Under the pieces are notes generated by a model, which saw nothing but the letters and a program-made list of their open reading frames with translations, did no database searches and was not told the DNA's origin. Of a stretch of 64,000 nt of DNA, positions 33,667-64,000 are shown piece by piece (within the stretch, counting starts at the first letter, position 1; each line of letters starts with the position of its first letter). The position numbers and the translations under genes were made by a program. Source of the DNA: Neckera pumila (Eukaryota > Streptophyta > Bryopsida > Hypnales > Neckeraceae); NCBI GenBank assembly GCA_963969595.1, contig OZ018418.1:11351001-11415000 (forward strand), read 5' to 3'.

Positions 33667-36600
33667 CTATTTTGGAAGTGTGATCATTCCAACTCGAACT
33701 AGCAGTAGCTTCAATTCATTGAAGCTATAACTTGGTGTATGAATGAATTTGTCTTCATTGACATCCATTTTGCAAAAGTACCTGTACAAATAGTACCAGT
33801 GCTTGCAATTCATGTATTGTTGCCGACCTCCTATAGCGGAAACTGCCATATTCACAAAGTCTGGGCATGTGCATGTCGGGAATTGGCCCAATGTAACTCG
33901 GTATGCATTTTTGTTAAAGTCTGACCCTGTCTCTAACTCTACAATTGCACCAAGGCCTGGGAAAGGGAGCAATGTTACTCCTATAATTCGCCCTCTAACA
34001 TTACCTGCACTTTCCCACTTGTTCCGTTGTTCGGCAGTAGGTGCGTTTGCAATCCTTCGAATGGCTCTGCTGTTCCTCACAGTAGAATACACGTCCAAGT
34101 TCTGCAGTGGAGGTTGGTCACACAAAACAGGTTTGAAAATCTTTGACATATTGAACAGTCGACGTGGGGACAATATGGGTCGTTCCTGGAGGCAAAATCC
34201 TGCATGTTGCAGCAACAATGTCTCTTCTCGATTTAGGTTAGTTCCCAATAGAACTAGCCAAACCTCCGGCACTTCCGGCCACTCCAGAACCCACTTCTGC
34301 TTTGTACCTTTCACGCATCGTTCAATGTCATCCCAGCAGAACTAGAAATCAACCACCACCTCTCGCTTGCTTCCATACTCTTCTTTTCTACCGCGGTAGG
34401 TAGGAGCTGGAGTTCCCTTCTTCCCTTTTGCAATCTTACTGGTACACTTGATGTTGGATCTTTGTTGTTGAGCTTGACATCTTGCGTTAGATTTGTGGCT
34501 GATTCTCGTAATGTGCCATTTTGATGTATCACAATCGCTTTCAAATGCTACCGTAACGTGTTGAGCAAGACTTGTTTGAGGTTGTTTACCTTTTTTTCCA
34601 AAAGCCTAAGAAACAATTGTGTTGGACCTTGTTCTCACACGAGGTTGAGAGAAATTAATTTTATCCGGTCTGTGTGAATCTCCGACATCACCAATGGGCA
34701 CATCCAACTTCCTCTTTGTGCTCCCAAATATTTCTTCTCCTTCTAAGTGTGGTACTTTGGTTCCCACACCCCCTGACCCCAATGCGTATCCTTTCAGGTT
34801 TGCACGGTAGTTTGTCATTTGCATCCAGGCACGAATACAGTCATCACATGTAGCGTCAAACAAGTTGTTTCCTCGCTTTTCGAACATTTGTAGCCACTTG
34901 TTATGTACCGTTTCAAATAAATTACAAGATGGCAAGTCCGCCATCTCCTCCAAATTCAATTTCTAGAAAATCCACAGGAGATGGTAAAATAGTTAGTGAA
35001 TAGTAAATGACATTCAAAATTGTAGAAACATGGAACTTCTGAAATATTTCGGTGCATTGGTTCTGTAGTATCATAAGGCAAGGGATTCATAATGACAATA
35101 CATGTAGGAATATATTGCTACTGAGATAACAAAGCATACTTCTCCCATCTTATTTTCCTATAAAAAAAAACCCTCTAACATTTTCTATTACCAAAATTGG
35201 ATTTTGTATTTCAAAGAACAGAAATCAAGGGGTCCTGGTGACACGTCAAATACATCCATCGGATCCGACGGATGCTATAACAGTGTTTCCAAGACCCCTT
35301 GTTTTTGGTACTATAAAAAAAAAATACCACCATTTTAATAAAATTTAATTAATAAAATAAAATTTGATCAAATAGGTAGAAGATACTACGACAAGTTGAG
35401 CCTTGGAAATTGAAATACTTCTACAAATTCAAATTCAAGGTTCACTCACCATGTCCATAAAGCCTCCCCATTGACGGTAGCGGAAATGCCAAAATGCCAA
35501 CTAGTGATCTAAGTGATGTAGAGCTTCTTCGTTGGCAGCTCCAGACGACAACCACCAAGATCGTATTGCAAGGTAACGGACCTTGGCTTGGTCCATATTC
35601 TTTGAATCCTTGTATTGTTTGCACAATATAATGTGTTGCTGTTGGAATGCTTCCTTGATGTACTTCTGCGTATGCTTGTGAAGAGAGGTACTCCAATGCA
35701 ACAAACATGTCCTCTCACGATTCTCCATTTCAACATCGGCGGAACCACTACCATAGACTATGCGGACCGCATTCCAATTGGCCATAGCGCTATCTGCCAT
35801 AAATCCTTTGAAGTTAGGGTTTCCCACTCCCTGGCAATCCATGACCGCGTTCAAGCTCCGCCAACACTATACTTGAGCTTCGGTATCTTCGGATTGCATA
35901 TCACACATTGCAATAGTCATCACCTTCTGATACTTAGTATCATACACGTGGTAGGCCATTGTGGTCCATTCCTTCACGAGCTTCACGTGGTCAAACATCA
36001 ACCACGCATTTTGCAAATCTACTCCCGGTTGCATGCGCCTTACGAGGTCGACTCCACTTCCTGGTCCTTCCGTAAGCATCTTGAAAATGTATACCTTTCC
36101 TTGCCTTGGCCTAGGAAGACGCTGTCATGTATGAACTCAAACTTTGCTTCTTTCTTCATGGTCATGATGTTGTCGTTTATCCCTCCTCAATTGTTAGAAC
36201 AAAAAGAAAAGATCACATTGCGAATACTTAGACTACTCAAGTACTGGAAGCGGTCCATGACCTCTTCCATTTCTTCCACTTTCAACATCTTCTTCTCTCC
36301 TTCTCCATTGTGAAATAAGTGGCTTACAAGAAAGTCTTTACTAGCAGCAAGAGTGATTGCGGAGTTTGTGGCCGTGGGTGTTTTGGCCACTTGCTCCGCA
36401 ATGAGTCCGCAAATCCTTTCAGTAGAATCTCTGTACATGCCTTTAGCAACACGGTGACCATGCTCTCCAAAATGAATAGCAGCCCTACTCATGTCTGAGT
36501 TATTTGTGTATGCAAAGTATATCCTAGCGTTGCATGCGCCAAGACACGTAGGTGCAATCTTGCAGACCTTGCAAACTAGGGTAGACTCTTTTGGGGGACA

Positions 36601-37607
36601 CCCACCAGCAATAAAAGGAAACACAGTATAGCCACTCTATTCAGTTTCGTTTCGCTTTGAAGCTCTCTTCAAATACTTACAATTGGCATTCTCACAGGCA
36701 AGATGGCCAGCACAATACGACTTACGGAATTTGAGGTTGTCAGCGTTATAAATGTTCGTGGTCACTAGCTTGCACCACGGATGTCCATCATAGCGCTTGT
36801 CCATTCCTTCCAAGTTCTTGGCTCCGATGAAGATGAAGATGACCCACAAGGAGGCAATTCAAAGATGACATCCCCGTCGAATACTGGTGGAAAAAATGGA
36901 ACCTGTTGGTGCTTCACAGTGCTCAGATCCATTGTCGACAACTCGTTTCGAGAGCGATGCATACTGGCAAGTCTCTTGAGACACTCCATTATGCTTGCTT
37001 TTGCTAGTACAGGTGGTTACAAAGGTTGTACTGACAATGAGGAATTAGAGAGACTCCTTGATGGGGTTCCAGATACTAATTTCACAAAATTCGTCTCTCC
37101 CAGTTCAATTTGGACAGAACAACTCTGATTCTCAGCATTGACATTGGGAGACTCTCCTTCAGATTTTGTAGACAACTCTATAATTGGATCTAATCTCTCC
37201 TCTTTTACAACAGGAAGTACTACAGACATCTGTAGGATAGGTAGAGTTCCTTTAGGTGTACTAGGCGACAAGGCATGAGGATTGATCGGCATATTAATAG
37301 TAGAATTATCTGATTGGCGACTCTGGATTTGTGTAGATGCATCTAGCATAGAGAGTGGAAGTCCGTATGCTCTATAGTTTCCAGGAGCAAGGTACCAGCA
37401 ATGCGTTCCATCCTCCACCGATGTCGCAACTGGGACAAACTGTACCACTTCACCTGATTCCGACCTTTTTTCTTCCTCAATATAGATGGAGGTTTCTACA
37501 AATCTGAAGCGGACGTGCAAAAGGTGACAAGGAACTCTAGCGCGTCCACCTTCTACTATTGGAAACACAAGAGGAATGTCATGACCATCAACTCTAAGCA
37601 AAGCCAT
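33667..37607 (-). pseudogene. Gene A1: GCM-type zinc + MULE-like DDE + SWIM transposase, broken
   Basis: Two exons: 37607-35450 (2158 nt) and 34962-33667, with a GT..AG intron. The start ATG (MALLRVDGH) matches that of A2. Domain order: ~95-residue N-terminal domain, SUMO-interaction-like PIIELSTKSEGES, GCM-like zinc region (TTNIYNADNLKFRKSYCAGH, CENANC, CKVCKIAPTC, HFGEHGH), DDE core (MFDHVKLVKEW, FMADSAMANWNAVRI, CLLHWSTSL) and, in exon 2, a SWIM finger (CTCPDF ... NCKHWYYLYRYF). Against A2 it has two one-base deletions (near 36827 and 36095) and stops near 37019, 36638, 36188, 35867, 35505, 34606 and 34347. Most stops replace Trp, Gln or Arg codons. It lies divergently to B1. A functional ancestor would bind element ends and catalyse transposition in the nucleus. 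Confidence 0.8.
35220..35310. repeat. Palindrome with TCGGATCCGA core, A1 intron
   Basis: The outer arms AAGGGGTCCTGG and CCAAGACCCCTT flank an inner dyad CATCCATCGGATCCGACGGATG. It lies about 150 nt from the donor, the same place as the palindrome in the A2 intron, although the arm sequences differ. Confidence 0.85.
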
Positions 37608-39896
37608 TGCTGAAACCTGCAGAGACACTCCAACAACATGAAAAATTCAATCAACAAATACATAAGGTAAAGAACCAAACTTTCAATCCTCTATGATTGG
37701 GGATCCTCTATAGCTTTATTTTGGCTAGTCCTATGTATTCATTGTGCAGCCAATCTTTAATGCCATATTTTTCTATTGAAGATATTGATTGCAAGGATTC
37801 TGCAATTGTTACCAAAAGTTTCATATCTCTTCTGAAATTGAATTGAGTGCTTTATATGGCAAAGGAATATAATGAATTAATGTTCCTTGATTATTAGGAA
37901 ATCAAATAAGAATGCTTTATAGAGAATAAGTGGAGACGGCAGAGTAGGATTTTTTATCAACATTTCTAACAAAAAATACAAAAAATATGTACATGTGCGA
38001 ATGCACAGTATACTGGATCTAAGTAGGAAAAAACTAATCCGTAAAAATCCAATTTGAATTTTGAACATGACCTCAGCTTTTCTTTATCACTTTGCTACGA
38101 ATTCCTTATAATATACCAAAGAAAAATTGACCAATTTTTATTGAATTTTCTTCTCATATTCTACTAAGGTAACATTCAAAATCATAGCACATTCAGATCC
38201 AATATCATAAATTGTAGAATTAAAGATTTGGAAATTCTCCTTACAACTAGGATTAATTGCGCAATTCCTTTAATACTTGGTCCACATTATAATCACATGT
38301 AATACATATTAGTCCAATGCAAATGTATATAATTTGTATAAATGTAGACAATTCAACTTATAAAAAAGTAAAAATTAATGCGCATATACATATTCTGAGA
38401 TAAATATATATTTTTAAAATCATAATATATAAATGCACTAACACCTGAAGGAACATTTGTACCTTTGCTAGACAATTTGAGTTTGAGAAAACTCTTCCGG
38501 TTTTAATTTTTAGTGACAAAATCATTCAAAATTCTTGAGGCTTCATTCATTTGGAAGAGCTCTACAAATATAAAATTTTAATTTTACTAGATTCAAATGC
38601 GCAAGTACTTGGGCATAGAAAGCAAAATACGAGTGCTCTTACTAGCCCAAAAGAAATGTGAGGAAGTCAATGTAAATCTTCTGCAAATTTCTTTCTCATA
38701 AATAATGCTATTCATTACGTGGGAAGCTTGGTTTAATTTTATTTGGAGTGCTAATGAGAAGTTCCCGGACATCCAAAGTTATTTGGGATATATAAGCATC
38801 TTCATACGATTAAAACTTCTAGAGTTCATTTTTTTGTACATTCACTAGAATTTCCCAATAATAATTTTAGACAAGTCTATAATATCTTATTAGCAAAATT
38901 TGACAATTCAGACTGCTATGATGTAATTTTTCGCAAAAGCTATAAACAATGTAGTTTTGTCTTCAATTTTGAACCCACATTTTCTTCTTGAAAGTTTAAT
39001 GTAAAAAAAATGAAGTGCGTTTCTTCTAGAAATTTTTGGAATGATTCTTATTTCATTTACTAGATACATATGTAGAATATCAAAATCTATTTTGCAAAAA
39101 CTTTGACAGTGGACCTTAGGGATAAATGTGTCTATCATTTCCCAACAAGAATTTCAAACATTACCACTTCAATTATGGAATATCATTATGTATATAAGCA
39201 ATATTTCTTTTGCACTTTGGAACACTACAAACATTTTGTTGATAGTACCATTCTTAAAAATTCATATATCATAGTGTAATCAACATTATAATGAGGCCAT
39301 GTTTTCAATCCCAAGACTCATATGTCTATAACTTGTCATATTCTTTGAAAGAAATAAACAAATGCCTAGGTTGTGACAATTTATTGTAATACAGAATTGA
39401 GGGCATTATGAAATGCAACATTGTCAAAAGCATTATTTTTCAAATTCTAGAAGCTCGTGCGTAAAGAATCTGACTACGTATTGAAATCATTGCTTATTAA
39501 TTTTGTGGTTTAGTCTTCAATATTGACATAGCCTCCAAAAGTCATTTCGTTTTGTACATATTTTATTTGAGCGGCACGATTATAAACTTGCCATCTGCAT
39601 CTACTTTGACAGCCTATTAACACGATTCTCATTACGATTGAACTTCATGTGACGGTGTTAGTCGTACAACCTCACTGAACATAACAAGGGGCACTCTTGC
39701 ATTTCAAAATCATTCCTATGGTTCTCAGTTTTCTTCAGTTGCTGTCAATGAGTGCGACTAGGTTCTTCCATTTTCTTGGTTGCTCATGCTTGTAGATTGC
39801 AAAGTAATTGAGTTGATTAGAGTAAAATTGAGAAAGAGAGGAAGGAGACGTGGTTTGCTTTATTTTTCATCTGCCAAGGCTTTGAGATGATCCAGG
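37608..39896. promoter_or_regulatory. Shared upstream region of divergent genes A1 and B1
   Basis: 2.3 kb separates the two start codons, and genes point away from each other, so promoters of both must lie here. It contains a diverged ~700-bp MITE copy. Core promoter elements cannot be assigned with confidence in this AT-rich sequence. Confidence 0.4.
38435..39130. mobile_element. Diverged copy of the 904-bp MITE
   Basis: It starts CACTAACACCTGAAGGAACATTTGT and ends GGACCTTAGGGATAAATGTG, matching the ends of the 3739-4642 element. Interior matches include GGAAGCTTGGTTTAATTTTA, TGCTAATGAGAAG and AAGCATCTTCATACG. It inserted between the start codons of A1 and B1; unit 2 has a different MITE in the same interval. 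Confidence 0.6.
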
Positions 39897-40298
39897 ATGA
39901 CAAGAGGACCGAGAGTTCCGCCGAAAGCTACTGAGACGACACATGGCGATCTTTGAAGAATTCTTCGATTTGAAGCTCAGATTAGTGCTGGAGAAGAGGA
40001 TGCCCCTAGTGATGGTGTTGAGGCAAGACAAGAGATGTTTGCAAAGAATTCAAATGCACACCGCCAAGGAAGGATTGAGGACAACCTAAACGTAAGAGCT
40101 TTTTTTTGTGCTTTTCATTATCTCATTAGCCTGTTCTCTAGTTAGTTCCTCAAAGATCAACATTGTAATAAAGGTTTGTGGTAACTTGACTGAGTCTTTT
40201 CAACATACTGAGGTGTCAATTGCTTTTAGATGCAATGTATTTGGGGGTAGATATAATTCAGCCACAGCTTTAGGATCTACAAGTGACAGTCATCTGGT

Positions 40299-40438
40299 CG
40301 GTTGGTACACCTACTCGGGCAACCGGCTGGATCTGTCAACTAGCAAAGGTCCATCTCCTCCCTGTAGGATCGACGGTCCACGATTGACTGCCCAGTCGAC
40401 GCTCCACCTGCTTGCGCCACCGCGTGAATACCAAACTT
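40299..40438. repeat. Long imperfect palindrome, B1 intron 1
   Basis: The left arm (GGTTGGTACACC, GGCAACCGGCTGGATCTGTC) pairs imperfectly with the right arm (GACGCTCCACCTGCTTGCGCC, ATACCAAAC). The centre contains GGATCGACGG, close to the core of the other intronic palindromes. Confidence 0.6.
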
Positions 40439-41143
40439 TTTTTAGTAAATCTTGGGCAAATACCTGATCGCACAGGCTAGGAATCTGGGTAACTTTCAAA
40501 TTAACTAGGTCCCGACCTGGCGCCCATGGACTTCGTCGATTCGAAGGATAACATCGCAATCTCTAATGTACCCCTGATAGCCCGATAATTGGAGGAGTTC
40601 CATTCTATTTTGAGCATCCGCTGATTTCCATAATTGCGCCATTTAAACTGGATCTCAAACTAAGCTTATCCGAAATGAATACCGATGTGTGAAGCCAGGC
40701 CGCGGCTAACATTTCCATTATCACGTTAATCTCTTCAATTTTTTCAGTCTCTCCTTCACAACTCGCCACATTTTGTAATTTTGTTGTCTTCTTGAGCAGA
40801 GGAGGATGACGAGGAGTACGCGTAGCAGGGCGAGAGGGGCGACTATAAGTTTTCAAAACCACTCCAGAAGATCCCAATCCAAGTCACAAGTAATGATTCA
40901 AAACTCTTTCAAATTCATTTGAGTCAATAACTGTCGGTAGCAAGCAGGTTTCAGGCAGGTCCAAGCAGGGACAAACACCGGGAGTGTGCAAGGGTAAGCT
41001 TGATTTCTACATATTGAAGTAGACACTAATCTTTTTGTGCCTTGAAATCTCACATCCAAACTGCGGGTGCTCGCCGAACGGGATTGTCAACATTGGATGA
41101 GTACTCTGTAATTGGGTTCTGTGGAAATCTTGAATTAGCTTTT

Positions 41144-41953
41144 GGAGGGGTGCAGCTCAGTCGGCCAAAACCTTTGTCGGATCCGACAGTACTCAATAGT
41201 GACTCAGCTTGACCCCTCGATTCTGAACGTGCACTCAGAAATTTTGTTGGCTTCACAGTTAGTTGATCTAGTTCCTCATTCTTTTTGCTTTTAAGGGGGT
41301 GCAGCTCAGTTTGCCAAAACCTTTGTCGGATCCAATAGTACGCTAGAGTGACTCAGCTTGACCCCCCGTTTTTAAACGTACAGTCAAAAATATTGTTCGC
41401 TTGACAGTTTGGTGATCGAGTTCCTTATCCTTTTCGCTTTTTAGGAGGTACAGCTTAATTGGCCGAAACCTTCATCGGATTCGTCAGTACGCTAGAGTGA
41501 CTCAACTTGACCCCGGATACTAAACGTGCATTCAAAAATGATAATGGCTTGACAGTTCGGTGATCGAGTTCGTCATTCTTTTTGCTTTTTAGGAGGTGCA
41601 GCTCAGTTGGCCAAAACCTTCGTCGGATCCGACAGTACGCTAGAGTGACTCAGCTTGACCCCCCGATCCTGAACGTGCATTCAAAAATACTGTTGGCTTC
41701 ACAGTTTGTTGATCGAGTTCCACATTCTTTTTGCTTTTTAGGGGGTGCAGCTCAGTCGTCCGAAACCTTTGTCGGATCTAAAAGTACCGTAGAGTGACTC
41801 AGCTTGACCCCTTGATTTCAGCGTCCATTTATGGTTTCACTATTTCTTGATCGGGTTCCTCAAACTAATCAAAAACTAGGGGGTGCAGCTCAGTCGGACG
41901 ACACCTTCGTCGGATCCGACAGTATCTTAGAGTGACTCAGCTGGACCCCCTGA
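41144..41953. repeat. Six palindromes in a ~148-bp tandem array, B1 intron 2
   Basis: Copies start near 41144, 41294, 41441, 41590, 41739 and 41877. Each ~75-bp palindrome pairs GGGGGTGCAGCTCAGT with GACTCAGCTTGACCCCC around TCGGATCCGACAGTA. Core variants are TCGGATCCGA (three copies), TCGGATCCAA, TCGGATTCGT and TCGGATCTAA. Spacers share GTTGATCGAGTTCC and end in CTTTTTGCTTTTTAG, which looks like a 3' splice site placed just before each palindrome. Confidence 0.9.
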
Positions 41954-43666
41954 TTTAAGATCACCCCTTTCAAGTTTCTGTTGATTTCAAATAAAAACTT
42001 TGAGTATCTGTAGATTACTGAAGGTTTCAATTGACTTCTTTGGCTCTCAGAAGATTTAGAGACAGCTATGTAGATTTTAGAAGATTTGAGTACATTTCTA
42101 TAGATTTTAGAGCTTCCAAAGACATTTAAGAAGAACTTTGTAAATTCTAATGGTACAAACATAGTAGAACTCAGAGGTAGATATCAAAGGTTTGAAAGGA
42201 ATTTCAAGATTTGAATAAAAATTTTGGATTCAATTATAACTTTGTACAAAAAAAAAAATTTGGAGGATTAGAAAAAATTTCAATAATTTGAGATTGAACC
42301 TTTGATTAAAATATACAAAATTACAGGACTGCATCTACAATTATGAAGGCTTGCTGGAAATCATAGATTTTTTGAATGCTTGCTTATCAATACATTTTGA
42401 GCTTTATAAATTCAAATGCACTTGGTAATCCTTCACAAGTGTAGATATTGGTGACATCAATTTTTCAAATCATGGCAATCATCATTTCTTGAAGGTTTAG
42501 ACGAATTTTTAGTTTCAGAATGTGAGTTCTTCATTGTTATGGATAAAGAGTTTATCTCTCATTATTTCATCTTTCATCTACGAATTCTCTAGATTTGGCA
42601 ATTGAGGTGCTTCATGAAATTTTGTTGATAGCAAATTGAATATTTTTGAAGCATTTTTGAAGGAAATCATAGATGAAAATTCTCTTATTGCTTTGGTTTG
42701 CGGTGTCCCTATAATACAAAGTTTGAATCCATTTCCAATTTTCTAATAGCGGTTATTAAGATTTCAAAGGAATATTGGTGAGTATTGTCAAAAAATTCCA
42801 TGTGATATAAGTTGATTTGTCAACGTAAAGAGCAGGGTCCATGTCTGGTGATTTCTAAGTTTTCTTAAACATAAAAATCTCTCTTGATTTCTGAATCTGG
42901 CAATGTTGCATATCCCCAGAAGGCTGGAGGTGAACAAGACCTATTTTCACCCACTCTCATGCCTCCTATTGATACAGAGACTCATGAAACAAGACTTTCT
43001 CAGCCACTGGTACCAATGTAGGAGAATGTCGTGGACTCTAGCGATTCCGAAGAAGAGAAAGGCGATGAAGAAGATGAAGCTGATGAAGAGGACTTGGTAA
43101 GCTTTGCGGATGTGATGGACGCAGCTGACTATGCATTTGATGCTTTTGAGAGTTCTGTGCTTAGTAGTGTCAGTGACCCTGGAGTAGCAAAACGGAAACT
43201 AAGCCTCACACCAAAAGCGAAACGTAGGCGTCTTGACTTGATCCTTGAGATGGCTAGAAACCGTCCAGACAAGTTTATGTCTCTCGAGAGTTCGGAAACG
43301 GAATATAGCTCAAGCAGTCAGGAGTCCATTATCGTCAATGGTCCAATGAAGGAAAAGACTTGTCACTGCGCTTGTAGTAGTGTTCAAGTTATACGAGAAC
43401 CTGTTTTCATCCACTTGAGCTCTAACTCAGAAGAAGATGTCCAAATTGACTGAATTTCTTTGAGTGGAATCATTTTTGGAATTTCTTGCTTTGGACCTTT
43501 GAATGTGGAATACATGTAATTTGCAAACCTACACTTGAACCTTCAAATGATTGAACCTAAATGCATTCATTTTTCCTTGGATTTATTTATTTATTCTTGC
43601 TTGAAACTTCAATTCTGTGAATGCAAGTATGTGGATATTGGTTAATTCTTTGATCTGAACTTGCAG

Positions 43667-44343
43667 ATGGATGTGACTCCCACAAACCTTTGGCATGAAG
43701 ATACCATTCACGAAACTCCAAACACCGGAGAGTCCTCCCAACCACATATTTTAGGTGAAGAAGAAGGTGAAGAGATGGAGGAACTTGTGCCCAATGATGT
43801 GTTGGAGGCTGACAGCAAAGACTTGCTGGAAGACGATCTACGATAGTACCACAAGGTGGATTCCGTCAACACAATTGCATCATTGCGGATGAAGCCGGAT
43901 CACCTATTCCGTCTTCAAATCCCGCTTTGTCGCATGGTGCCAATGCCCATGGTGAGGCCCATCCTCTCCTGTGACCTTGATTTCTTGGAGCACGAGTTCA
44001 CTAATGGTTACCGAGATGGAGCTGCAGTATTCTATGTCACCACCACAGATGAAGGCGGTGAAAGCTCAGACTTCACGGTAGTGGAGATGGAGAAGTGGAG
44101 TCCACTATGGAAGGAAGGAAATGCCATTTTCAATGCCCATGTCGAGTCCATACAGGAATTGAGGTTCTTGAAGAACCTCAAGTTCTATGTTTGTGATGGT
44201 AATCACAGACTCATAGCATGGATGAACTACATCACAAAGAAGCACCCCACAGACAAGGAGTGGCACTATAGTGTTGACTCAATCATTCTTGATACAAAAG
44301 GCAAGACCAAGCTCATCATGCATGTAATGCATGACATAAGCAA
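43667..44343 (+). CDS. B1 exon 4, ParB/sulfiredoxin-like domain
   Basis: The exon follows TTGCAG and opens at once with ATGGATGTG, as in B2. An acidic leader (EEEGEEMEELVP) leads to a TAG near 43844, then to the domain: IPLCRMVPMPMVRPILS, a ~75-residue insert, and FYVCDGNHRLIAWMNYI. ParB-N and sulfiredoxin families share a fold in which a G/D-x-H-R motif binds nucleotide phosphate; here it is DGNHR. A donor follows MHDISK. In ParB proteins this fold acts as a CTP-dependent clamp or nuclease; activity here is unknown. The first in-frame Met after the stop would be in the domain itself. Confidence 0.7.
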
Positions 44344-53615: not shown

Positions 53616-54086
53616 TTATGAAGACTCTATGTCTACCGGTTCATCCGAGTCAGAGCTCAGATGAATAATGACAATCTCGTGTCTTGGGTCACTAACACTA
53701 CAAGCACATTGGCAGAACTCTTCTTGCAGAGGACTACAAACAGAAAATGAATAATTGGATGATAGACTATACTCAGTCTCTGAGCTTTTTGATGAGAACA
53801 CCGGCTGTCTTCTCTTCAATTTTCTCTGGGAACTGAAGTCATTTTCACGTGATCGTTTCTTTAAGTCTGCAGGACGATGAATTGCATTCACAATTGCACC
53901 GGTGCTTACCAAGTCATCCTCATCAAGTTCTTCCTTTTCAGAGTCACTAGAGATGTCCACATTTTCTTGGACAGGAGTCAAAGGCTCAGATTGACCTCTA
54001 CTCTCCTGGATAGGGACAAGTTGAGCAGGTGCAATGGTTTCTAGATCCAAAGAAGAGGCTCCATGACCAACACTGGCATCTACGGT
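53616..54086 (-). CDS. B2 exon 3, acidic with two SUMO-interaction-like motifs
   Basis: 157 codons including a terminal TAA. It carries ENVDISSDSEKEELDEDDL and, near the end, EIVIIHLSSDSDEP; hydrophobic tetrads followed by Ser/Asp/Glu match SUMO-interacting motifs. A basic middle (KKRSRENDF, RKLKRRQ) could be a nuclear signal. The B1 counterpart also ends with a stop at the same place, so this may be the true end of a first product made from exons 1-3. Confidence 0.55.
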   Translation of the reverse strand, partial: TVDASVGHGASSLDLETIAPAQLVPIQESRGQSEPLTPVQENVDISSDSEKEELDEDDLVSTGAIVNAIHRPADLKKRSRENDFSSQRKLKRRQPVFSSKSSETEYSLSSNYSFSVCSPLQEEFCQCACSVSDPRHEIVIIHLSSDSDEPVDIESS

Positions 54087-54341
54087 CTGCACATATAAAA
54101 TCAAAACAATTCATCATATATGATATCCTAATTTTTTGAGATTCCAAATTTTAACAATAATTTATAAGTAACAAAACTTTTAAATATTTCGTCACATTCA
54201 CATTAGCTAAATTTTGATGTTCAGACATAACATGATACCAGAGATTGCAAATTTGGCAAACTCCTAAAGTTCACTTAGAAGCAATGACAGGTTCATTTCA
54301 CCTATTAATGACCTATTTCATGTCATTTTTATCGTTCTTGG

Positions 54342-54512
54342 AGCATGAATTAGAATTCTAGCGCATTTGGTAACATACGGGTATCAAAAGAAGGGGTAGC
54401 CCTAGCAACCATGAAAAGTGAAAAAAAATCCAAAGGTCCTTTCTATGGTTGCTGAGACCACCCCTTCTTTTGGTAACCGTATGTGACCAAATACGCTAGA
54501 ATTCTAATTATG
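54342..54512. repeat. 171-bp foldback hairpin, B2 intron 2
   Basis: A left arm of ~75 nt (GCATGAATTAGAATTCTAGC, ATACGGGTATCAAAAGAAGG, GCAACCAT) is repeated inverted on the right (GAATTCTAATTATGC end). The AAAAGAAGGGGT segment also occurs at the right end of the A2 intron palindrome, linking it to that family although the centre lacks the core. Confidence 0.85.
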
Positions 54513-54919
54513 CCAATTGATAGAATAAATATTTTCTAGAAAAATGAACAAACACTTTTCTGCGCCCAATAAATTCAAGGAATCACTAGAGCTTCATCCA
54601 AATAAGAAATAGAAAGGAAATGACATTGCAAGAAAATAATAAATTACTAAATAGAAAAAAAAATGAGAAAAAAATATTATAATGAATAATTGGGGACCAA
54701 ATTTTTTTTTCTTGTTATACATTAAAATAAATAGCATAATATTATGGATTAAAAATAAATGGAGTGAAAAATGAAAATAAAGAAAGGAAATCTTAAAAAC
54801 ATTAAATAAACATCAGAATAGAATATTGGGAATCGAAAGAAGAGAAATGTATAAAGAAACTCCAAATTATTGTGACCTCTTTCCAAATATTTGACAAGGA
54901 AACTAGTCTGATATTCATA

Positions 54920-55022
54920 GGGTTACCAGAATTCAGGATATCAGCCGGTACGCGCAAGGGCACCTTTGGGTCCGACAGTTCGTTTTGGGATGGCGGCGAG
55001 TACCGCTAATTCTGGTACCCGC
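54920..55022. repeat. Palindrome, B2 intron 2
   Basis: GGGTTACCAGAATTCAG pairs with CTAATTCTGGTACCC; the centre has TGGGTCCGACAG. Confidence 0.75.
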
Positions 55023-55321
55023 ATGGTTCTCATTGAAATTTGTTGAACAGTATCACTCTTGCCGTGCTGGTTCTACAAATACTGAAGAGGAAAAATATTT
55101 GTCAATCTAATTCTTATTTGCCTGAATACTTGAAATGGAAAGATCTTTCTTGACATAGAGTCTCGCTGAGGCTGATCCAAGCCAAATCTAGTAGAGCCAA
55201 CAATTCAGACCCCAATATTTAGGAACTTCGCAGTATTCAAAGAAATCGGTAGCTTCCAAATTATGAGGTTGGACTTGGAGTGAGTCGGGCGCTTGGGACC
55301 GGATGGAGACTGAAACGCTGA

Positions 55322-55413
55322 TGGGAATCGATTGTTGGACTAGCGGCAGACACCCTGGATTGGGTCATCGGATCCGACTTGGATGTTTCGGCTGCCGGCC
55401 GCTATCCCAAGAA
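55322..55413. repeat. Palindrome with TCGGATCCGA core, B2 intron 2
   Basis: Arms AGCGGCAGACACC and GGCTGCCGGCCGCT surround ATCGGATCCGACTT. Confidence 0.7.
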
Positions 55414-55818
55414 ATGGTTCCCTACAGGTTTTGAGGATTACTCTTCCTAGATTTAGAGTTTCCAGAAACTGCGAAATACTGTCATTAAACCAATCTTTAC
55501 AGCTATACAGAGCTACTCCGAGGATGTGTGCAAACGAGCAAGATCCGAGATGCTCGAAATTTATGAAATTTGACGAATTAAAGAGACAGGGCGGGCAAAA
55601 CAGAGTCTATGTGCTCATGAATTGGACCCAGGTTTGCAAATTCCTGAATTTTGTCTTCCTCTCACGATCAACTTCTTTGTAAGAATTGCAGCTCATACAT
55701 TCTTGCAATCTCTCCCTTTGCAACAGTTACTTGAGCATCACACAGAGTTTTGGAACTAACTGTCTAAATGCAGAAAATGAACGGAAGGCCTGCCTCATTT
55801 TTTTGCAGGGAACAACTT

Positions 55819-55919
55819 TGGTACTGGTTCTAAGGGTAGCCGCAGTCCCCGCGACACAGACCTTCGAATCTGACAGGGGTGTCAGCGCTGCTCACCACTA
55901 CTCCAGAAATTGGTACCCC
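55819..55919. repeat. Palindrome, B2 intron 2
   Basis: GGTACTGGTTCT pairs with AGAAATTGGTACC; the centre is TTCGAATCTGACAG. Confidence 0.65.
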
Positions 55920-56343
55920 ACCGCGATTAATTTAACTATGTTCTTGCTTCCTCATTGTTTGATCTCTTGCTAATCACGCTAAGTATTCTAATCTCCCAAA
56001 ACTCCAGACATTGACACAATGACAACTCAATGACAATACCTGATCCTTGCGACAGAAACACAGAACTTTTGCTTAAGAATTCATAAAATACTTTCTCAAC
56101 AAACACAGACCGTCATGATACATTCAGATTCATTCGATTTCATCTCCAAGGTCGCTTATTTTCTTGAACTGATGGTGCTTAAGTTCTAAAAACAGATGAA
56201 CAAATAAACAAAATGCTGATAACTAATGAGAAATGTCAAACCTGGGCTCTTGCGGACGGCCCTAGTAATCCTTCAGCTGCAGGTGTTCCAGCTTCCAGCC
56301 TCTTGCGACTGCGAGTGCTTTGCGTGTTTGTCATTGGAGCAGT

Positions 56344-58858
56344 CTGAACATGAAGAATTCAATAGGAAACTGAAATGAGACTGCAAACGATTTGCGGAAG
56401 TGACAAGAACGATCAGACTCCTAGTGAGCGCAGCACCAGCAAGAACTTCTTTGGCTAAGTGCAGTTTTTGAAAAGAAGGGGTCATGCGGAGTCATTTTGT
56501 ATTTCCAGCCGACGTCTGTATCTTGACAGCCGAGTCCACCGAGAATTCTGCGCGGGTGTGGTTGAACATTAAAGAAGTTGCTAAATTCAAATTCGGTGAA
56601 GATCTGACGAACAAATGAGCACTCCTCGAAGGTGAGAAAATCTGGGAAGCCACATCCTTTCATCCCGTCTAATTTTTCGGTAACCTCATCTCTAACCAAG
56701 TTCCAAACTGATACGTTGAGAATTTTTTGTTCTCAGGAGTTTTGGCATTCATCACCGAGATTCTGAAAATTAGAGTGGATTGAACCTCAGGTCTGAAAAT
56801 TTAGCAAGATTGAAAAATGCTATTTATGAACCCACCGGTGCTTCATAAATTTTAAACCCGCCACTGCTTCATATTTCATCCAAAATGGTGGACCGCAGCA
56901 GTAAATAAGCTCAATAATTTGAAAGAAAAAAAGTAGTTAAATGATTTTGTGCCACAGTTGAATTGTGGCAATTGTCAGTTGACTCTGAAATTGGATTTCA
57001 AGGCTCGTAAAAAATGGCTTCTAAAGATTTTCATTACTATGCAGGTCAAGCGGAGCCATTTGAAGATTTCTGTTTCTATTAAGAATTAAATCCATTTGGT
57101 TCATTCTCTACCATTTTCTTAAAACTGTCGCCTGAGGTTTAAGCAAAAATTCCCAATTTTTTATAATAATTGACCATGAAGATTGCGAATGTGATTATTT
57201 CCATCCACATTCCTCTGAAATTTAGAGAGAAGATCTTGCTTGTGAACACAAAAGTCCGCCCTTGCTGATGCATTCATTCATGCAACTCATTCTAGAATTC
57301 AAAACCACTATTAAGCCATTTCACCATTTTATGCAGCGCTGGAAGATCAAGTGTAAACTATTTTAACAAAATTAAGGAATGAGGATTTGGGGGTATAACC
57401 GACAGATACAATTGGGCATTATTTTCCTTTAAGCTATGATTTTCCATAACTTTGCTATCACACTAATGAATGAAATTAATAAAATCATGAAATTTTCTAA
57501 GGAAGTAATTATTTTAGATAATACAATATATTCTAAAGTGTCCAATTTCTCTTAAATTTATTTATGAGGTCAACCCCTTGTTTAATTGAATAGGATTTGT
57601 TGTTTAACTGCTCATGTAGGCACTAAACTGAACAAAAACTTAATTCAAATATAGTTTAAGAATTACTCCTCCTCCCGGAAATGTTTATAGAAATTACCCC
57701 ACAAACAGAGATAACTGAAACATGCCCTAATATTTTATTTTGCTGCCTTGTTGTAGGATTAAACTTCAGGGGTCAAATGCAAGAGACACCATTAATCTGT
57801 GATAGAAATGGATTTTTGCTTTTTAAGATTGTTCACTACTGCAAATATTTTATGGAAATAAAGATGTGTGTTTGACATTTAAAACTTAATAGGTTTTTGT
57901 TTGAACCAGGTTCCAAGCTCTTCTAGTCTATTGAAAATGGACTTGATATTACCATTAAAAGTTTAACACATTTCACTTTATAGAGAATATGCATTGATTG
58001 CATTGACACTAAGAATGTCCATTTCATTTTAATAACTAGACTAAGTAGAAAAAGTATAAGCTACAAACCTAGAGAGAAAATAATATATTCTGGATAAAAC
58101 AAATTGCACAACCTATTCCTACTTTATCCAAATATAACTTTGGGTTAACCCCACGATTGATTTTCTTGGATTTGTTCAATTATTGATCCAAGGCATTAAT
58201 GTTGACAAATTCTTCATTCCAATCAAACTGATCAATTTTTGTTGCTGTGCATAAGGTTTTAAAAGACTAAAACCACAATATTGAGAATTGTAACTTGCAC
58301 CATATTTCCTTCATAATTTGGAAGCTTCAAAGCAAAATGAGTGTGAACAAAACTGTAAAATCAACCTACTCTATACCCATATCAATCACATTTGTCACCT
58401 ACCACATTGATAATATTTCTAAAGTGGAAGGCATAAAGTAAGTTTCTTTCTATAATTATTATTGGTGAAAAATTTGGTGGTCACTATTAAGATTTCTACT
58501 GATGATTCTGGCCTGAAGTCCAAGACATTATTACGAACTGCCAAAGAGTTCTATTCTTTGGTGTCACTGAAAACAAAACAACTTCATCTTGCTCTCACAA
58601 GTTGTAACAGGGTGCACCAAACCTAAATGTTCTAGGTTCTTCAAACTCAAGTACTATACCATGACACTTTGCTTCTTTGAAGTCCATGGATTCCTAACTC
58701 TATAATGAACGTCACAATAGTGTTAACTCAATATTGAATCAAAACTCTACTTTCATTCTCATCTCTCAATACCATATTAGAGTTTTCTTACAACTGTTGA
58801 ATAACTTGGACGACAGAAAGCATTTCAAAGGATGAAGGTACGATAGTGATATGCTTAC
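56344..58858. other. B2 intron 1, no other feature seen
   Basis: 2.5 kb of AT-rich intron. An open frame at 56421-56699 on the minus strand (MVRDEVTEKLDGMKGCGFPD) reads like possible protein but has no counterpart in B1 and no motif; it may be a fragment of an unidentified gene. Confidence 0.35.
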
Positions 58859-59050
58859 ATTGAAGTTGCTGTGCTCCCCAACAACATTTTGAACCGTAGC
58901 ATCCTCAATTGCTTGTTGTGGTGAATCTGCGCACTGGCCTTCAGTGTCGTCTTCTCCGTGAGAACCTCCTCCCTCAAAGCGTAAAGACTTCCGGAGTTCG
59001 CTTGCTGTTGCCTCATTTGTTTTGGACACTGCTTTCTTCCGTCGTGTCAT

Positions 59051-60368
59051 CCTAGCTCTTCTGAGTGCCTTAGAAGTCGAAAAGTAAAGAGAACTTCGTT
59101 TCTTCCTCTTCTTTGTATGCACAAATACAACAAACACTAAGTTCTGTTGCTCTAGAAGCATGAGAAAGCACAAGAACACATCAACACTCCTCAACAAAGA
59201 AACTAAGGCTACACTTACACAACCAAACTGAAATGACTCTTTGCTGAGGAAGGGGCACATATGTAGTCGCTCAGAAGCTGGGCGTCGCACACAAAATTGA
59301 TGGCATTCAATATTGTGTACATGTCAAAGGCATGCTTGGAATTGACAAGTGGTAAACCTGTCACGTAGTAAAATGCACCGTCAGTTTTTGAAACTACGTA
59401 GCCGCCAGTAGTAAAGTGAGTCTGATGACGCCTTTTCTTTTGATGTTGCTATCCAAGTGGGGATCCATAATTACAAATTTGTGAGCGCAAAAAAATTTGT
59501 GCATGCAAATTTATGGTACTTCATAGTACTGCCTATTCACTTTAAAAATCTTCTTTAGTATTAGAGCCCCAAAATATAAGACCCTCTGCAATGTTGTCAC
59601 GATATACAGCCCAGTATCGGTATAGCTAACTTTTGAATGCTAATCAATTTGAAATTGAGAGTTGTTTTATTGAAAGCGCATCAGAAAAAACTTGGAAAAG
59701 GAACACAAACGTTTAAAACAAGACATTGGACAAGTACTTCAAAAGCAAGATAGAAATCTGAAATTATAGAGGTCTTACCAAATCACGGCTTCCTAACCAA
59801 AATTTGGTCAATGACCCTCCACATTTGATAATTTCCAAAGTGTTTACGATCAAATGTTGCTCTGGTAACCATGATTTTCTAAGACCTCTATAATTTCAGA
59901 TTTTTACCTTGCTTTTGAAGTACTTGTCCAATGTCTAGTTTTAAATTTTTTTTGTTCTATCTCCAAGTTCTTTCCGATGCACTTTCAATAAGACAATTTT
60001 CAAACTTGAATTGTTTAGCATTCAAAAGTTAGCTATGCTGATACTGGGCCGTATATCGTGACATCATTGAAGATGGTCTAAAGCGTGCCCATTAAAATAT
60101 CTGACATAGCCGCCTAGTCTTATTTAAAATCTGTCTGAAAGACGAAGCTTCAGAAAGTAGTTTGCGACTTCATGAAAGAGGTAACTCATAATTGAAGATG
60201 AATTTGAAATCGCAGATATCTTGGCAAACCCCACATTGTGCTAGCATCCTTCGCAATCACTTGACACAGTTGTGAAGGTTTAGTACTGTTAAATGATATA
60301 GATGGGCTTTGTATTGCCTATCAAGGATTGCTTTTGTTTCCGCTTCGCATGTTGAGTGTGTTGTAATC
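59051..60368. promoter_or_regulatory. Shared upstream region of divergent genes B2 and A2
   Basis: 1.3 kb between start codons, of which 499 bp is a MITE. Without the MITE the gap is about 0.8 kb, compatible with a bidirectional promoter. A minus-strand open stretch at 59220-59440 (GGYVVSKTDGAFYYVTGLP) may be a 5' exon or an unrelated coding remnant; its phase with exon 1 could not be settled. Confidence 0.45.
59580..60078. mobile_element. 499-bp Harbinger/Tourist-like MITE with TAA target duplication
   Basis: The ends are GACCCTCTGCAATGTTGTCA and the matching CATTGAAGATGGTC, with TAA directly outside both (59577-59579 and 60079-60081). The two ~200-nt arms are inverted copies of each other around an ~80-nt centre, so the whole element can fold back. 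The TWA duplication and terminal sequence suit PIF/Harbinger MITEs. It has no coding capacity and sits in the B2/A2 promoter interval. Confidence 0.85.
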
Positions 60369-63300
60369 ATGGCTTGTATTCGAGTAGATGGTCATGAGGT
60401 TCTGTTGGTGTTTCCAGTAGATGAAGGAGGGCGTGCTCGAGTACTAAGCCACCTTCTTCATGTACGCTTTAGATTTGTAGAGTCCTCAATCTATGTTGTC
60501 GAAGAGAAGAAGTCCAAGTCTGGAGAATTACAGCAATCCATCCCGGTTGTCAAGTCTGTCGAAGAAGAAGGTCACTGCTGGTATTTGTCTTTGGGGAATT
60601 ACAGAGCTTATGGACTTCCCTTGTCTTTGTTAGGTGCACCAACTGAGATTGTAAGTCGGCAGTCAGATAACTCCACTGTGAATATGCCATACATATCTCA
60701 AACCGAAGGGCCTAGTCCGCCACATCAAGTGTTCCCAACCCTCCGTAGCAAAGCAATTCTCTAAACAGTGAAGGTCAAGAAATTAGACATTGTCATAGAG
60801 TTGTCTAGTGAATCGGAAGGAGAATCTCCCGACCTCACACACCAAAAACAATCTTGCCGAATTCCATCCATCCCAAGTGAGAAAGCAAATGTAAAATGCT
60901 TATCAAAAACCCCATCACATAGTCCAGCCCAGTCTTGTTTCTCACGTCCGCCACTACATCCAACACCCGTTGACCGTGTAAGTATCATAGAATGTTTGAA
61001 GAGACTTGCCAATATGCATCGGTCGCAAAACAAATTGTCAATAATGGATCTCAACAACATCAAGCATCACCGTGTCCAGTTTCTTCCGCCAGTATTCAAT
61101 GGAGATGTCATCTTCGAACTACCTCCGTGCCGGTCATCGTCGTCTTCATCGGCAGCCAAGAACTTGGAAGGAATGGACAAACAATATGATGGACATCCCT
61201 GGTGCAAGTTGGTGACGACGAATATTAACAACTCAGACCATCTCAAGTTCCATAAGTCATACTCCGTTGGTCATCTTGCTTGTGAAAATCTAGAGTGTGA
61301 TTATTTGAAGAGAGCTTCCAAAAAAAACGAAATAGAGTGGAGTGGTTATACAATGTTTCCTTCTGCAGTTGGAGAGACGCCTCCCAAGGATTCTTCTTTA
61401 GTTTGCAAACTGTGCAGGACATCACCTACGTGCTTGAGCACATGCAATGCTAGAATGTATTACAGCTATAGTGATAATTCTAAAATGAGTAGGGCTGCCA
61501 TTCACTTTGGACATCATGAGCATCATGTGGCAAAAGGCATGTATAGGGATTCCACAGAAGAGATTTGTGGACTCATTGCAGAGCAGGTGGCCAAAACACC
61601 AACAGCCACCAACTTTGCAATTGCTCTGTCTGCTAGCAAGGAATTTTTAACAAACTACCTATTTCACAATGAAGAGGGAGAAAAACAAATGTTAAAGGGG
61701 GAGGAGCTGGAAGAAGTGATGGACCTTTTTCAGTACTTGAGCAGTCCAAATATAAGAAATGTGATATCATCATTTCGCTCAAACAACCGGGGAGGTGTTA
61801 TAGATAGCATCATGACCATGAAGAAAGAGTATAGGTTTGAGTACATTCACGATAGCGTTTTCCCTGGACAAGGGAAGGAGAAGGTTTACATATTCAAGAT
61901 ACTTACCAAAGGGCCAGGAAGTGGAGTGGACCTGGTGAGGCGCATGCAATCCAGAGGGAATCTCCAAAACGCGTGGATGATGTTTGACCACGTGAAACTT
62001 GTGAAAGAGTGGACCGTAATGGCGTGCCACATGTATGATCCGGATTACAAGAAGGTTATGACCATTGCAACATGCAACATGCAATCTGAAGATACTGAGA
62101 TCCAAGTGCAATTTTGGAGGTGTTTGAATGCTGTAATGTCAAGAGACGAAGTAGATTATCCTAACTTCAAGGGATTCATGGCAGACAGTGCTATGGCTAA
62201 TTGGAATGCTGTACGTATTGTCTATGGATCTGGTTTTGCCACTGATAAAATGGAGAATTGTGAGCAGACGTGCTTATTGCATTGGAGTACATCTCTACAG
62301 AAACACACTCAGAAGCACATCAAAGAGGCATTTTAGCAACAACACAATGCACTGTGTAAACAGTACAAAGATGCTAAGACTATGGAGGAGGCAGAGACAC
62401 GTTACCTTGCAATTCGGTCGTGGTGGTTTTCCTCTGGAGCTGCCACTGAAGATGCACTTCATCACTTGGATCATTGGCTTGCATTTTGGCATTTCAGATA
62501 TCGGCAATGGGGAGGCTTTATGCAAATGGTAAGTCCGCAAAGAAGTTAAAGTAGCATGTGCAATATTGCAGTTTTTGAATACTAGTATGTATAAAAGTTT
62601 TGTTCATATTTGATTTGATTAATGTTACGAGAAACAACCTTTGTATTTTAAATTTTAAATTTGTTTTTCTTTTTTTCTTTGAGTGTTCCAGAATAGGGGT
62701 ACCTTGAGGGAGCCAGAACACTACCGTCAGATCCAACGGTAGTATTTGGGTAATCGCAGGGTACCCCTTCTTTTGGTCCAACTTTGGAATTCAAAAACAA
62801 AGGAATGATATTTTGTATTGTTTGTCTGTTAGAATGTTTTTTTTCAAAAGAAAAATATTTATATATTATTTTCTTCTAAACCCAGAATGTTGTTTAATTG
62901 TATTGACGTACATGTGGACTAAGTTTTCTGAGTTCACAGTGATTAGTGAGCTTTCATATATGAAATTGTACTAATGAATTTTTTTTTGAGATGGATTTCT
63001 AGGATTTGAGTTTAGAGGAGCTGGCAGATATGCCATCCTGTAACTTGTCTGAAACAATTTACAACAAGTGGCTTCAAATGTCGGGCAATCAAGGCAACAA
63101 TTTATTTGATGACACTTGCGATGATATTATCCGTGCGTGGACCCAAATGACAAACTACCATGCTTACTTAAAAGGGCATACATCTGGATCAGGTCCATCG
63201 AAGGGGGAGTTAAAATTGAGAGTTGCAAGACAAAGTGGAGACCCTAGGAAAGTAGTAGAGGCATTGAACACATTGCCCGGAGCTAAGGGTGTTGGAACTC

Positions 63301-64000
63301 GCATACCGCACTTGGAAGGAGAAGAGATTTTTGGAAGCACAAAGAGGAAGTTGGACATTTCCATTGGCGATGCAACAGACTCACATCGACCTGACAAAGT
63401 GAATTTCTCCCAACCTTGTCTTCGAACAAGGTCCAGTACGGCTTTCACAAAGACCTCTGAGGACCAAGGGAAGCAGCCGGAGGTTCATCCATCCAAGCAT
63501 ATTACGATTGCATTTGAAAGCGATTGCGATACGTCAAAGTGGCACATTGCAAGGATCAGCCACAAATCAAACGCAAAATGTCAAGCTCAGCAACGGACAT
63601 CGAATATCAAGTGCATTTAGGAATCATTGCTAAAGGACGGTCGGGAACACCAGCTCCCACTTATCGTGGTAGGAAGGAAGATTACGGCATAAGGCGAGAA
63701 GTGGTGGCAGACTTCTGGTTTTGTTGGGATGACACTGAAAGATGTGTAAAAGGTACTAAGCGCAAGTATGTTATAGACAAGCCAGAGGTACCGGATGTTT
63801 GGCCTGTTTTAACCGGGACTAACCTCAATCGAGAGGAGACATTGTATCTACAGCATGCTGGTTTCCTACTCCAATCGCGGCCTACATTATTACCACGACG
63901 ACTCTTCAATATGTCAAACATTTTCAAGAGTGTCTTTTATAATCAACCGCCGCCACAGGATGCAGGTGTGTATCCAACGGTTAGGAACAATTGTATCACT
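60369..64000 (+). pseudogene. Gene A2: GCM-type zinc + MULE-like DDE + SWIM-class transposase, broken, runs off the window
   Basis: Exon 1 60369-62528 (exactly 720 codons), GT..AG intron, exon 2 from 63003. Start MACIRVDGHEVLL. Codons ~138-152: VIELSSESEGESPD (SUMO-interaction-like). Codons ~275-390: GCM-like zinc domain (TNINNSDHLKFHKSYSVGHL, CENLEC, CKLCRTSPTC, HFGHHEHHV). DDE core: Asp ~540 in MMFDHVKLV, Asp ~606 in FMADSAMANWNAV, His ~638 in CLLHWSTSL, the layout of MULE transposases. Lesions: TAA at 60762, TAG at 62334 (Gln in A1) and a frameshift near 63600-63620, after which the other frame continues (TYRGRKEDYG, DFWFCWDD). The SWIM finger seen in A1 would lie beyond the window. It is the better preserved A copy, with 522 uninterrupted codons. 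Confidence 0.82.
62686..62780. repeat. Palindrome in the A2 intron
   Basis: Outer GGGGTACCTTG and CAGGGTACCCC, inner ACTACCGTCAGATCCAACGG plus TAGT. It starts about 157 nt from the donor, matching the A1 intron palindrome in position but not in arm sequence. Confidence 0.85.

What the first reader, a model, noticed from the sequence alone, without database searches (positions are those of the whole stretch)
33667..64000. A two-gene mobile-element-like unit (GCM-MULE-SWIM transposase plus ParB-methyltransferase), present as two diverged inverted copies
A and B are divergently transcribed in both copies and share exon lengths and splice sites, although the copies have drifted far apart. Recent local duplication is therefore unlikely, and the pairing of A with B looks like a stable property of the element. 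Seen: gene order, motifs, matching exons. Known: MULE transposases often carry SWIM and WRKY/GCM-type zinc domains. Inference: B is a cargo or accessory protein that helps maintenance, marking or transposition.
Basis: partly seen in the sequence, partly recalled or inferred. Interest (0 to 1): 0.88.

Follow-up and report, generated by a model that had tools for sequence, protein, structure and literature searches.

The report
Plant jumping gene with ParB-methyltransferase-like partner
A large jumping-gene family in a land-plant genome carries, back to back with its likely transposase, a second gene that resembles a phage-type DNA methyltransferase with an altered catalytic motif joined to a ParB-like box, and the two copies in this window sit one inside the other.

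Summary
Copy 2 (46730-65164, running past the window end) is inserted into an exon of copy 1's B gene with an exact 10-bp target duplication: the "inverted copies" are a nested insertion. The element is 17.2-18.4 kb, with imperfect 25-bp terminal inverted repeats, 9-10-bp target duplications and divergent genes A and B. Of 198 listed A loci, 134 have a divergent B within 20 kb (random 2.2); all five subfamilies sampled in sequence have B. A exon 1 and B's ParB-like exon show purifying selection. B's C-terminal part is homologous to phage adenine methyltransferases, but catalytic motif IV is altered in all five, so methylation is unlikely. ParB (GxxR box) and GCM/MULE/SWIM labels rest on motifs only. 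New here: subfamily-specific palindromes in the A intron, B intron 6 and arrays between the genes; 21 of 23 sites of one lie near listed A/B loci, and 48 of 50 listed sites (81 in all) of the other lie between A and B. ParB-methyltransferase accessory proteins are already reported in algal transposons (PMC12477816): a new variant of a known kind.

The parts
32466..46729 (-). Copy 1 of the element, first part (resumes at 65175-68144 outside the window, in L057); A1 + B1
   Evidence: about 94-95% identical to genomic copies e1 (L051-L053) and e2 (L054-L056)
46730..64000 (+). Copy 2 of the element, nested in copy 1 (ends at 65164, outside the window); B2 + A2
   Evidence: Starts CAGGGTTGCTA at 46730, ends ..GCTAGCGTTGTTG at 65164
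46720..46729 (.). 10-bp target duplication ATCTCAGCGG of copy 2; second copy at 65165-65174
   Evidence: Exact match on both sides; copy 1 sequence resumes behind it
32456..32465 (.). Target duplication of copy 1, CACTACCGAC; partner CACTGCCAAC at 68145-68154 (8 of 10 match)
46730..46754 (+). Left terminal inverted repeat of copy 2 (about 25 bp, imperfect) followed by GAGCCTGTGAGC-type subterminal repeats
   Evidence: 16 of 25 positions match between the two ends of e1
33667..37607 (-). A1, transposase-like gene: exon 1 about 37607-35450, exon 2 about 34962-33667, broken; SWIM-like CxCx(n)CxH in exon 2
60369..64000 (+). A2, transposase-like gene: ATG 60369, exon 1 to 62528, exon 2 from 63003 to beyond the window; stops at 60762 and 62334, frameshift near 63600
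42998..46729 (+). B1: GxxR-box (ParB-like) exon 43667-44343, then 45048-45240, 45339-45533, 45624-45839, 45975-46210, and an exon from 46583 cut at 46729 by copy 2
48557..54110 (-). B2: GxxR-box (ParB-like) exon 53408-52744; further exons 52629-52440, 52339-52145, 52054-51839, 51716-51481, 50762-50039; methyltransferase-like exons 49936-49588 (motif IV DCPNN), 49486-49213 (motif I region), 49123-48905; last exon 48818-48557
   Evidence: model transferred from the near-intact relative L058; the last five boundaries are read from the splice motifs
41135..41959 (+). 149-bp tandem array between A1 and B1, unit core GTCGGATCCGAC
   Evidence: same array in e1 (L052 2798-3609)
46363..46400 (.). Palindrome in B1 intron 6 (GATCC core)
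51115..51345 (.). Two palindromic hairpins with GGATCC core in B2 intron 6 (51115-51212, 51278-51345)
35253..35274 (.). Palindrome CATCCATCGGATCCGACGGATG in the A1 intron
62721..62742 (.). Imperfect palindrome CTACCGTCAGATCCAACGGTAG in the A2 intron

Best explanation
A family of large DNA transposons, Mutator-like in behaviour, in a land-plant genome. SHOWN: 17.2-18.4 kb elements, imperfect terminal inverted repeats, 9-10-bp target duplications, nested insertion in the window, two divergent genes kept together across the subfamilies sampled, purifying selection on A exon 1 and on B's ParB-like exon. A is most likely the transposase (motif evidence). B is a roughly 1,080-residue protein with a GxxR-box ParB-like N-terminal region and a C-terminal adenine-methyltransferase-like domain that keeps parts of the cofactor site but has an altered catalytic motif. 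INFERRED: B no longer methylates; it acts as a DNA-bound accessory protein that recognises the element's own palindromic noncoding sites (A intron, B intron 6, tandem arrays between the genes) and there either keeps the element from being silenced, as VANC proteins do for Arabidopsis VANDAL elements, or helps assemble the transposition complex.
For: Ends and target duplications: four elements with both ends read. Pairing: 134 of 198 listed A loci with a divergent B within 20 kb, subfamily A-721 29 of 31; the five subfamilies sampled in sequence all have B. Selection: dN/dS 0.06-0.24 for A exon-1 pairs and 0.11-0.27 for ParB-like-exon pairs with finite dS above 0.3. Methyltransferase homology: PHROGs E 3.4e-7; hhalign against a Streptococcus phage MissD adenine methyltransferase, probability 93.5%, E 2.2e-7 over 189 columns, and against a Ruegeria phage one, 55%, E 1.2e-4 over 63 columns; Pfam PF01555 E 1e-4, below cut-off; solved DpnA structures E 0.005. 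Motif IV: MissD DIPYNL aligns with L058 DVPEGL; the Tyr position is E, N or D in five subfamilies. GxxR box at least 90% conserved in 41 aligned sequences. Palindrome CCGTCNGATCCGACGG: 23 places in 339.5 Mb, 21 near listed A/B loci (random 0.7), 7 just after A exon 1 and 10 at 1.6-2.0 kb past the ParB-like exon. Second palindrome: 81 sites, reversed control 0; of the 50 listed, 48 inside a divergent A-B interval.
Against: No profile identifies A as a Mutator transposase, and no significant match shows the ParB fold (hhalign with P1 ParB aligns the box only, P 0.28). Both structure models are unusable. Selection was not measured on the methyltransferase part. Nothing shows that B, rather than A or a host factor, binds the palindromes. 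Copy 2 has no tandem array. Four of the 21 near palindromes lie elsewhere than in those two introns and two of 23 have no listed neighbour. 64 of 198 A loci have no listed divergent B, among them all 27 of subfamily A-754, although the one A-754 copy whose flank I read has B.
Confidence: 0.6

Rival explanations
1. B is an active self-marking DNA methyltransferase: it binds the element and methylates it, as suggested for the algal ParB-methyltransferase transposon proteins.
For: Same two-part architecture and opposite-strand gene, 1104 aa, in Ectocarpus Sola1-1_Ec32 (PMC12477816, passage seen); clear methyltransferase homology.
Against: Motif IV lacks the usual aromatic residue in the five subfamilies sampled, and motif I reads D-x-TASTG in the three subfamilies where it was covered (copy 2, L058, L061), not the DPFxGSGT type (recalled, seen in the phage enzymes).
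Confidence: 0.12
2. B works directly in transposition (synapsis, end binding, target choice) and the palindromes are part of that machinery.
For: B stays with A in the subfamilies sampled; both show purifying selection; some Mutator relatives have a second gene, e.g. Mutyl with MutB in antisense (PMC6446971, table passage).
Against: The palindromes lie in introns and between the genes, not at the ends.
Confidence: 0.2
3. The palindromes are binding sites of A or of a host factor; B has an unrelated role.
For: A has a conserved Cys/His (GCM-like) N-terminal region that could bind DNA.
Against: No direct evidence either way.
Confidence: 0.3
4. B is passenger cargo captured by chance, as in Pack-MULEs.
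For: Mutator-like elements often capture genes (general knowledge).
Against: B has the same place and orientation in subfamilies whose B proteins are only about 27-50% identical, and its ParB-like exon is under purifying selection as A is.
Confidence: 0.03
5. The window arrangement is a local inverted duplication.
For: Inverted orientation of the copies.
Against: Exact 10-bp target duplication around copy 2, and copy 1 sequence resuming behind it.
Confidence: 0.01

Closest known systems
ParB-methyltransferase accessory proteins of algal transposons (Ectocarpus Sola1-1_Ec32, 21.5 kb; green and red algal elements cited there)
   Same: Similar protein size (1104 aa against about 1080), ParB-like plus N4/N6 methyltransferase architecture, coded on the strand opposite to the transposase in a large DNA transposon (PMC12477816, passages)
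   Different: Here in a land plant, with 9-10-bp target duplications (Sola elements make 4-bp ones: recalled), with an altered catalytic motif, and with element-specific palindromic sites. Their sequences could not be compared, so whether their motif is intact is unknown to me.
Mutator-like elements (MULEs), including MuDR and VANDAL
   Same: 9-10-bp target duplications; transposase candidate with C-x2-H after a conserved D and a SWIM-like C-terminus; an accessory gene
   Different: No Pfam MULE match; accessory gene unrelated by domain to those named in the passages seen of PMC6446971 and PMC5735166
VANC anti-silencing proteins of VANDAL elements
   Same: Element-coded protein; element-specific noncoding motifs that form tandem arrays and differ between families (PMC5735166, section 8 and passages)
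   Different: Different domains; targets here are palindromes; binding and hypomethylation untested
Phage and bacterial ParB-N6/N4 methyltransferase fusions (survey PMC12704722, passages; Bce_0392 in PMC5512222, passage)
   Same: Domain order ParB-like then methyltransferase (order recalled for the fusions); GxxR box
   Different: Intron-bearing eukaryotic transposon gene; altered catalytic motif; a middle region of about 500 residues without recognised domains
Retrotransposon-coded methyltransferases (DIRS1-like, PMC3266345, passages; DNMT retrotransposons, PMC5890265, abstract)
   Same: Transposable elements carrying methyltransferase domains
   Different: Retrotransposons; the DNMTs are active cytosine enzymes (abstract)

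Membership tests
Mutator-like superfamily | Target duplication of about 8-11 bp (range seen in table passages of PMC6446971) | tested here: met
   10, 9, 10 and 10 (8 of 10 matching) bp in four elements
Mutator-like superfamily | Terminal inverted repeats (14-500 bp per PMC6446971) | tested here: met
   about 25 bp, imperfect, 16 of 25
Mutator-like superfamily | Transposase recognised by a MULE or FAR1 profile | tested here: not met
   no Pfam family of that kind in 36 A proteins at E up to 1 nor for the five sequences at E up to 10; so formal membership is not claimed
Mutator-like superfamily | Two conserved D followed by C-x2-H, and SWIM CxCx(n)CxH | tested here: met
   D534 and D600 invariant, C629-x2-H632 at least 90% in alignment A5, 36 sequences; SWIM-like motif in A1, L059 and A2; motif definitions recalled; third catalytic acid not assigned
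N6_N4 DNA methyltransferase | Sequence homology to the family | tested here: met
   PHROGs 3.4e-7, hhalign 2.2e-7; Pfam 22.7 bits, below its 26.7 cut-off
N6_N4 DNA methyltransferase | Catalytic motif IV with an aromatic fourth residue, DPPY type (recalled; DIPY in the phage enzyme) | tested here: not met
   DCPEN, DCPNN, DVPEG, DYPDG, DVPEN in five subfamilies
ParB-CTPase fold | Box II P motif GxxR | tested here: met
   GNHR; H invariant, G, N, R at least 90% in 41 sequences; motif definition from PMC12704722 passages
ParB-CTPase fold | Significant profile or fold match | tested here: inconclusive
   only sub-threshold matches; model pLDDT 40
Algal ParB-methyltransferase transposon accessory proteins | Homology to the published proteins | not testable with these tools
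   sequences not held; architecture alone compared
VANC anti-silencing proteins | Binds element motifs and removes DNA methylation | not tested
   needs bench work

The most novel reading that the evidence does not exclude
A plant transposon has a ParB-parS-like module: B is an NTP-switched DNA clamp that loads at the element's own palindromic sites and arrays, spreads over it and shields it from silencing, with a dead methyltransferase domain as a cofactor- or DNA-sensing part. Site sequence and B co-evolve, splitting the family into subfamilies with private sites.
Probability: 0.15. Interest if true: 0.9.

Novelty: new variant of a known kind. Interest (0 to 1): 0.62.

Why it matters
The published idea is that ParB-methyltransferase proteins let transposons bind and modify their own DNA. 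Here the enzyme motif is altered in each subfamily sampled while the gene is kept beside the transposase, which points to a binding or shielding role instead. The rare, element-associated palindromes give concrete candidate binding sites, so the role of this class of accessory proteins becomes directly testable in a plant.

Tried and rejected
Local inverted duplication: rejected by the target duplication. 'Many A copies lack B': first lists suggested this for subfamilies A-721, A-754 and B-254; reading one flank of each (L060, L061, L065) showed the partner present, so capped hit lists explain at least part of the gap. Viral origin: one viral-contig scan with A found no relative. Full-length B against the protein database found nothing among the 7,994 candidates scored, probably because B is split into exons there; the ParB-like exon alone found 61 relatives. 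Solved-structure searches with A and with the ParB-like exon gave only chance matches. Phage and plasmid searches with the ParB-like part gave chance matches only.
Full report
WHAT IS THERE. The window is part of an unnamed 339.5-Mb assembly, C11:11351001-11415000. Five LEAFY SAM-domain matches over the family cut-off, best E 1.5e-27, mark it as a land plant or close kin (distribution of LEAFY recalled); that it is a moss is my guess from size and chromosome number, not a result. Copy 1 starts at 32466 and is about 94-95% identical to two genomic copies, e1 and e2, which end at the same points. At 46729 copy 1 stops inside a B exon; at 46730 a new element starts with CAGGGTTGCTA. It ends at 65164 with GCTAGCGTTGTTG, and copy 1's B exon resumes behind an exact repeat of ATCTCAGCGG. 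Copy 1 then runs to 68144. The 'inverted pair' is a nested insertion.

ELEMENT LIMITS. Four elements have both ends read: lengths 17,500 (e1), 17,525 (e2), 18,435 (copy 2) and about 17,234 (copy 1 without the insert, by subtraction). Target duplications: GTTGCAAGTT (10), CAAAGAGTG (9), ATCTCAGCGG (10), CACTACCGAC/CACTGCCAAC (8 of 10 match). The terminal inverted repeat is imperfect, 16 of 25 positions in e1. Both genes lie inside the ends.

PAIRING. After merging and dropping second pieces of the same locus, 198 A loci remain: 134 have a divergent B within 20 kb and 4 have only a tandem one; random A positions give a mean of 2.2, maximum 7 in 300. Subfamily A-721: 29 of 31. Subfamily A-754: 0 of 27 by list (1 of 27 has a listed B within 20 kb in any orientation), but the one copy whose flank I read has B on the opposite strand upstream of A (tblastn E down to 1e-14). 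The five subfamilies sampled in sequence, by one to three copies each, all have the pair: copy 1/e1/e2, copy 2, L058/L060, L059/L061 and the A-754 copy of L065. Against this, 64 of 198 A loci lack a listed divergent B; some are fragments, others may have a B beyond the capped lists, and I did not read their flanks.

GENES. A: long first exon (about 720 aa), then a second exon with a SWIM-like CxCx(n)CxH. Relatives: 104 proteins in the public database, E of 4e-54 or better, none with a precomputed Pfam domain. The alignment of 36 sequences (35 of those 104) shows invariant Cys/His residues in a GCM-like region, invariant D534, D564, D600 and a C629-x2-H632 at 90% or more. No relevant Pfam or solved-structure match. 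'Transposase' is thus inferred from motifs, position and the 9-10-bp target duplications. B: about 1,080 aa in at least ten exons, model from L058 with one in-frame stop and an unknown 5' end. The N-terminal exon carries GNHR, matching the GxxR P motif of the ParB-CTPase fold (PMC12704722, passages). Searches give only sub-threshold hits, some of them at that motif (ParB-like partition protein E 0.16 and 0.039, DndB 0.094, DUF1015 0.014); hhalign with P1 ParB aligns 13 columns at the box, P 0.28. The C-terminal part aligns over 189 columns with a phage adenine methyltransferase (probability 93.5%, E 2.2e-7), the motif-IV block before the cofactor block. Where that enzyme has DIPYNL, B has DVPEGL (L058), DCPENL (e1), DCPNNL (copy 2), DYPDGF (L061) and DVPENL (L065). 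The cofactor end keeps an acidic residue in A(F/L)E in the four subfamilies where it was covered, and D-x-TASTG in three.

SELECTION. Nei-Gojobori estimates: A exon 1, dN/dS 0.06-0.24 for pairs with finite dS above 0.3; ParB-like exon 0.11-0.27 likewise. ParB-exon pairs at dS 0.1-0.2 give 0.25-0.44, and very young pairs (dS below 0.1) 0.39-0.82 in A and B together, as expected for copies decaying after insertion. Many pairs between subfamilies have saturated dS and say nothing. The methyltransferase exons were not tested. The window copies are dead: stops or frameshifts in all four genes.

OTHER GENOMES. The ParB-like exon has 61 relatives with E of 7e-28 or better. Two contig lengths occur in both the A and the B list (555,475 and 185,737 bases: P0054/P0116, P0031/P0118), so the pair probably shares contigs elsewhere; hosts are unnamed.

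INTERNAL SITES. A palindrome with GATCC core lies in the A intron and in B intron 6 of both window copies and of e1, imperfect in the A2 intron. Its form CCGTCNGATCCGACGG occurs at 23 places in the genome (pattern read backwards: 2 forward, 1 reverse): 21 lie within about 12.5 kb of a listed A or B (random 0.7, maximum 4), 7 of them at 183-391 bases after A exon-1 hits, 10 at 1,565-2,040 bases after ParB-exon hits and 4 elsewhere; two have no listed neighbour. Copy 1 and e1 also have a 149-bp tandem array with core GTCGGATCCGAC between the genes. The L058/L060 subfamily has a different 285-bp array, about 11 copies, with core GTCTCTCGGGCCCGAGAGAC: 81 sites genome-wide, pattern read backwards 0; of the 50 places listed, 48 lie inside a divergent A-B interval (15 pairs) and 2 lie 1.9 and 3.5 kb upstream of an A; the other 31 places were not shown. 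Copy 2 has hairpins but no array. A looser hairpin scan found none in window 1-32465 nor in 9.5 kb of e1 flanks. VANDAL elements show a like pattern: family-specific motifs in noncoding parts, expanded as tandem repeats and bound by VANC (PMC5735166, section 8 and passages).

WHAT IS KNOWN. [quoted passage not shown] So the idea of a ParB-methyltransferase transposon partner is not new. My ten literature searches (listings, with passages of a few papers) showed no report of it in a land plant or a Mutator-like element, nor of an altered catalytic motif or palindromic sites; most subscription papers are not held, so this is a weak negative. The main text of PMC12704722 has no occurrence of 'plant', 'moss' or 'transpos'.

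VERDICT. Element, nesting and pairing are firm. Methyltransferase ancestry of B is firm; its inactivity is likely. The ParB and Mutator labels are probable but formally unproven. A binding and shielding role at the palindromes is a hypothesis.

Noticed in passing
G000:C11 (the window's contig): C11 (12.3 Mb) is enriched in B loci: 26 of 175 on the eleven large contigs, 2.1 per Mb against 0.29-0.63 elsewhere (binomial 1.6e-9; A 17 of 197, p 0.001). One query came from C11 and lists were capped, so part may be bias. It may be a sex or otherwise little-recombining chromosome; not tested.
   Followed up: partly
A5 alignment, residues about 133-145; window about 53620-53670 and 43400-43450: Many A proteins carry a hydrophobic-acidic stretch (such as VIELSSDSEGE) that looks like a SUMO-interacting motif; an open stretch in the B 5' region, 43% identical between copies, ends in a similar one (IVIIHLSSDSDEP). 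Motif recalled.
   Followed up: no
window 43214-43450 and 53625-53861: Reading frame past a conserved GTAAGC donor stays open and is 43% identical between copies: perhaps a second, short B product by intron retention.
   Followed up: no
window 1024-5483: Inverted repeats, arms up to 186 nt and 92% complementary, about 4 kb apart: another repeat element.
   Followed up: no
window 9748-10728: Two adjacent open frames (165 and 160 aa) that look like part of an unrelated DNA transposon protein (impression from recall).
   Followed up: no
window 58900-59184 (-) and 39762-40034 (+): Weakly conserved block (63% DNA) starting about 1.2 kb (copy 2) and 2.2 kb (copy 1) upstream of the A start codon; may hold the B first exon (MTRRKKAVSK...) and a shared two-way promoter.
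   Followed up: partly
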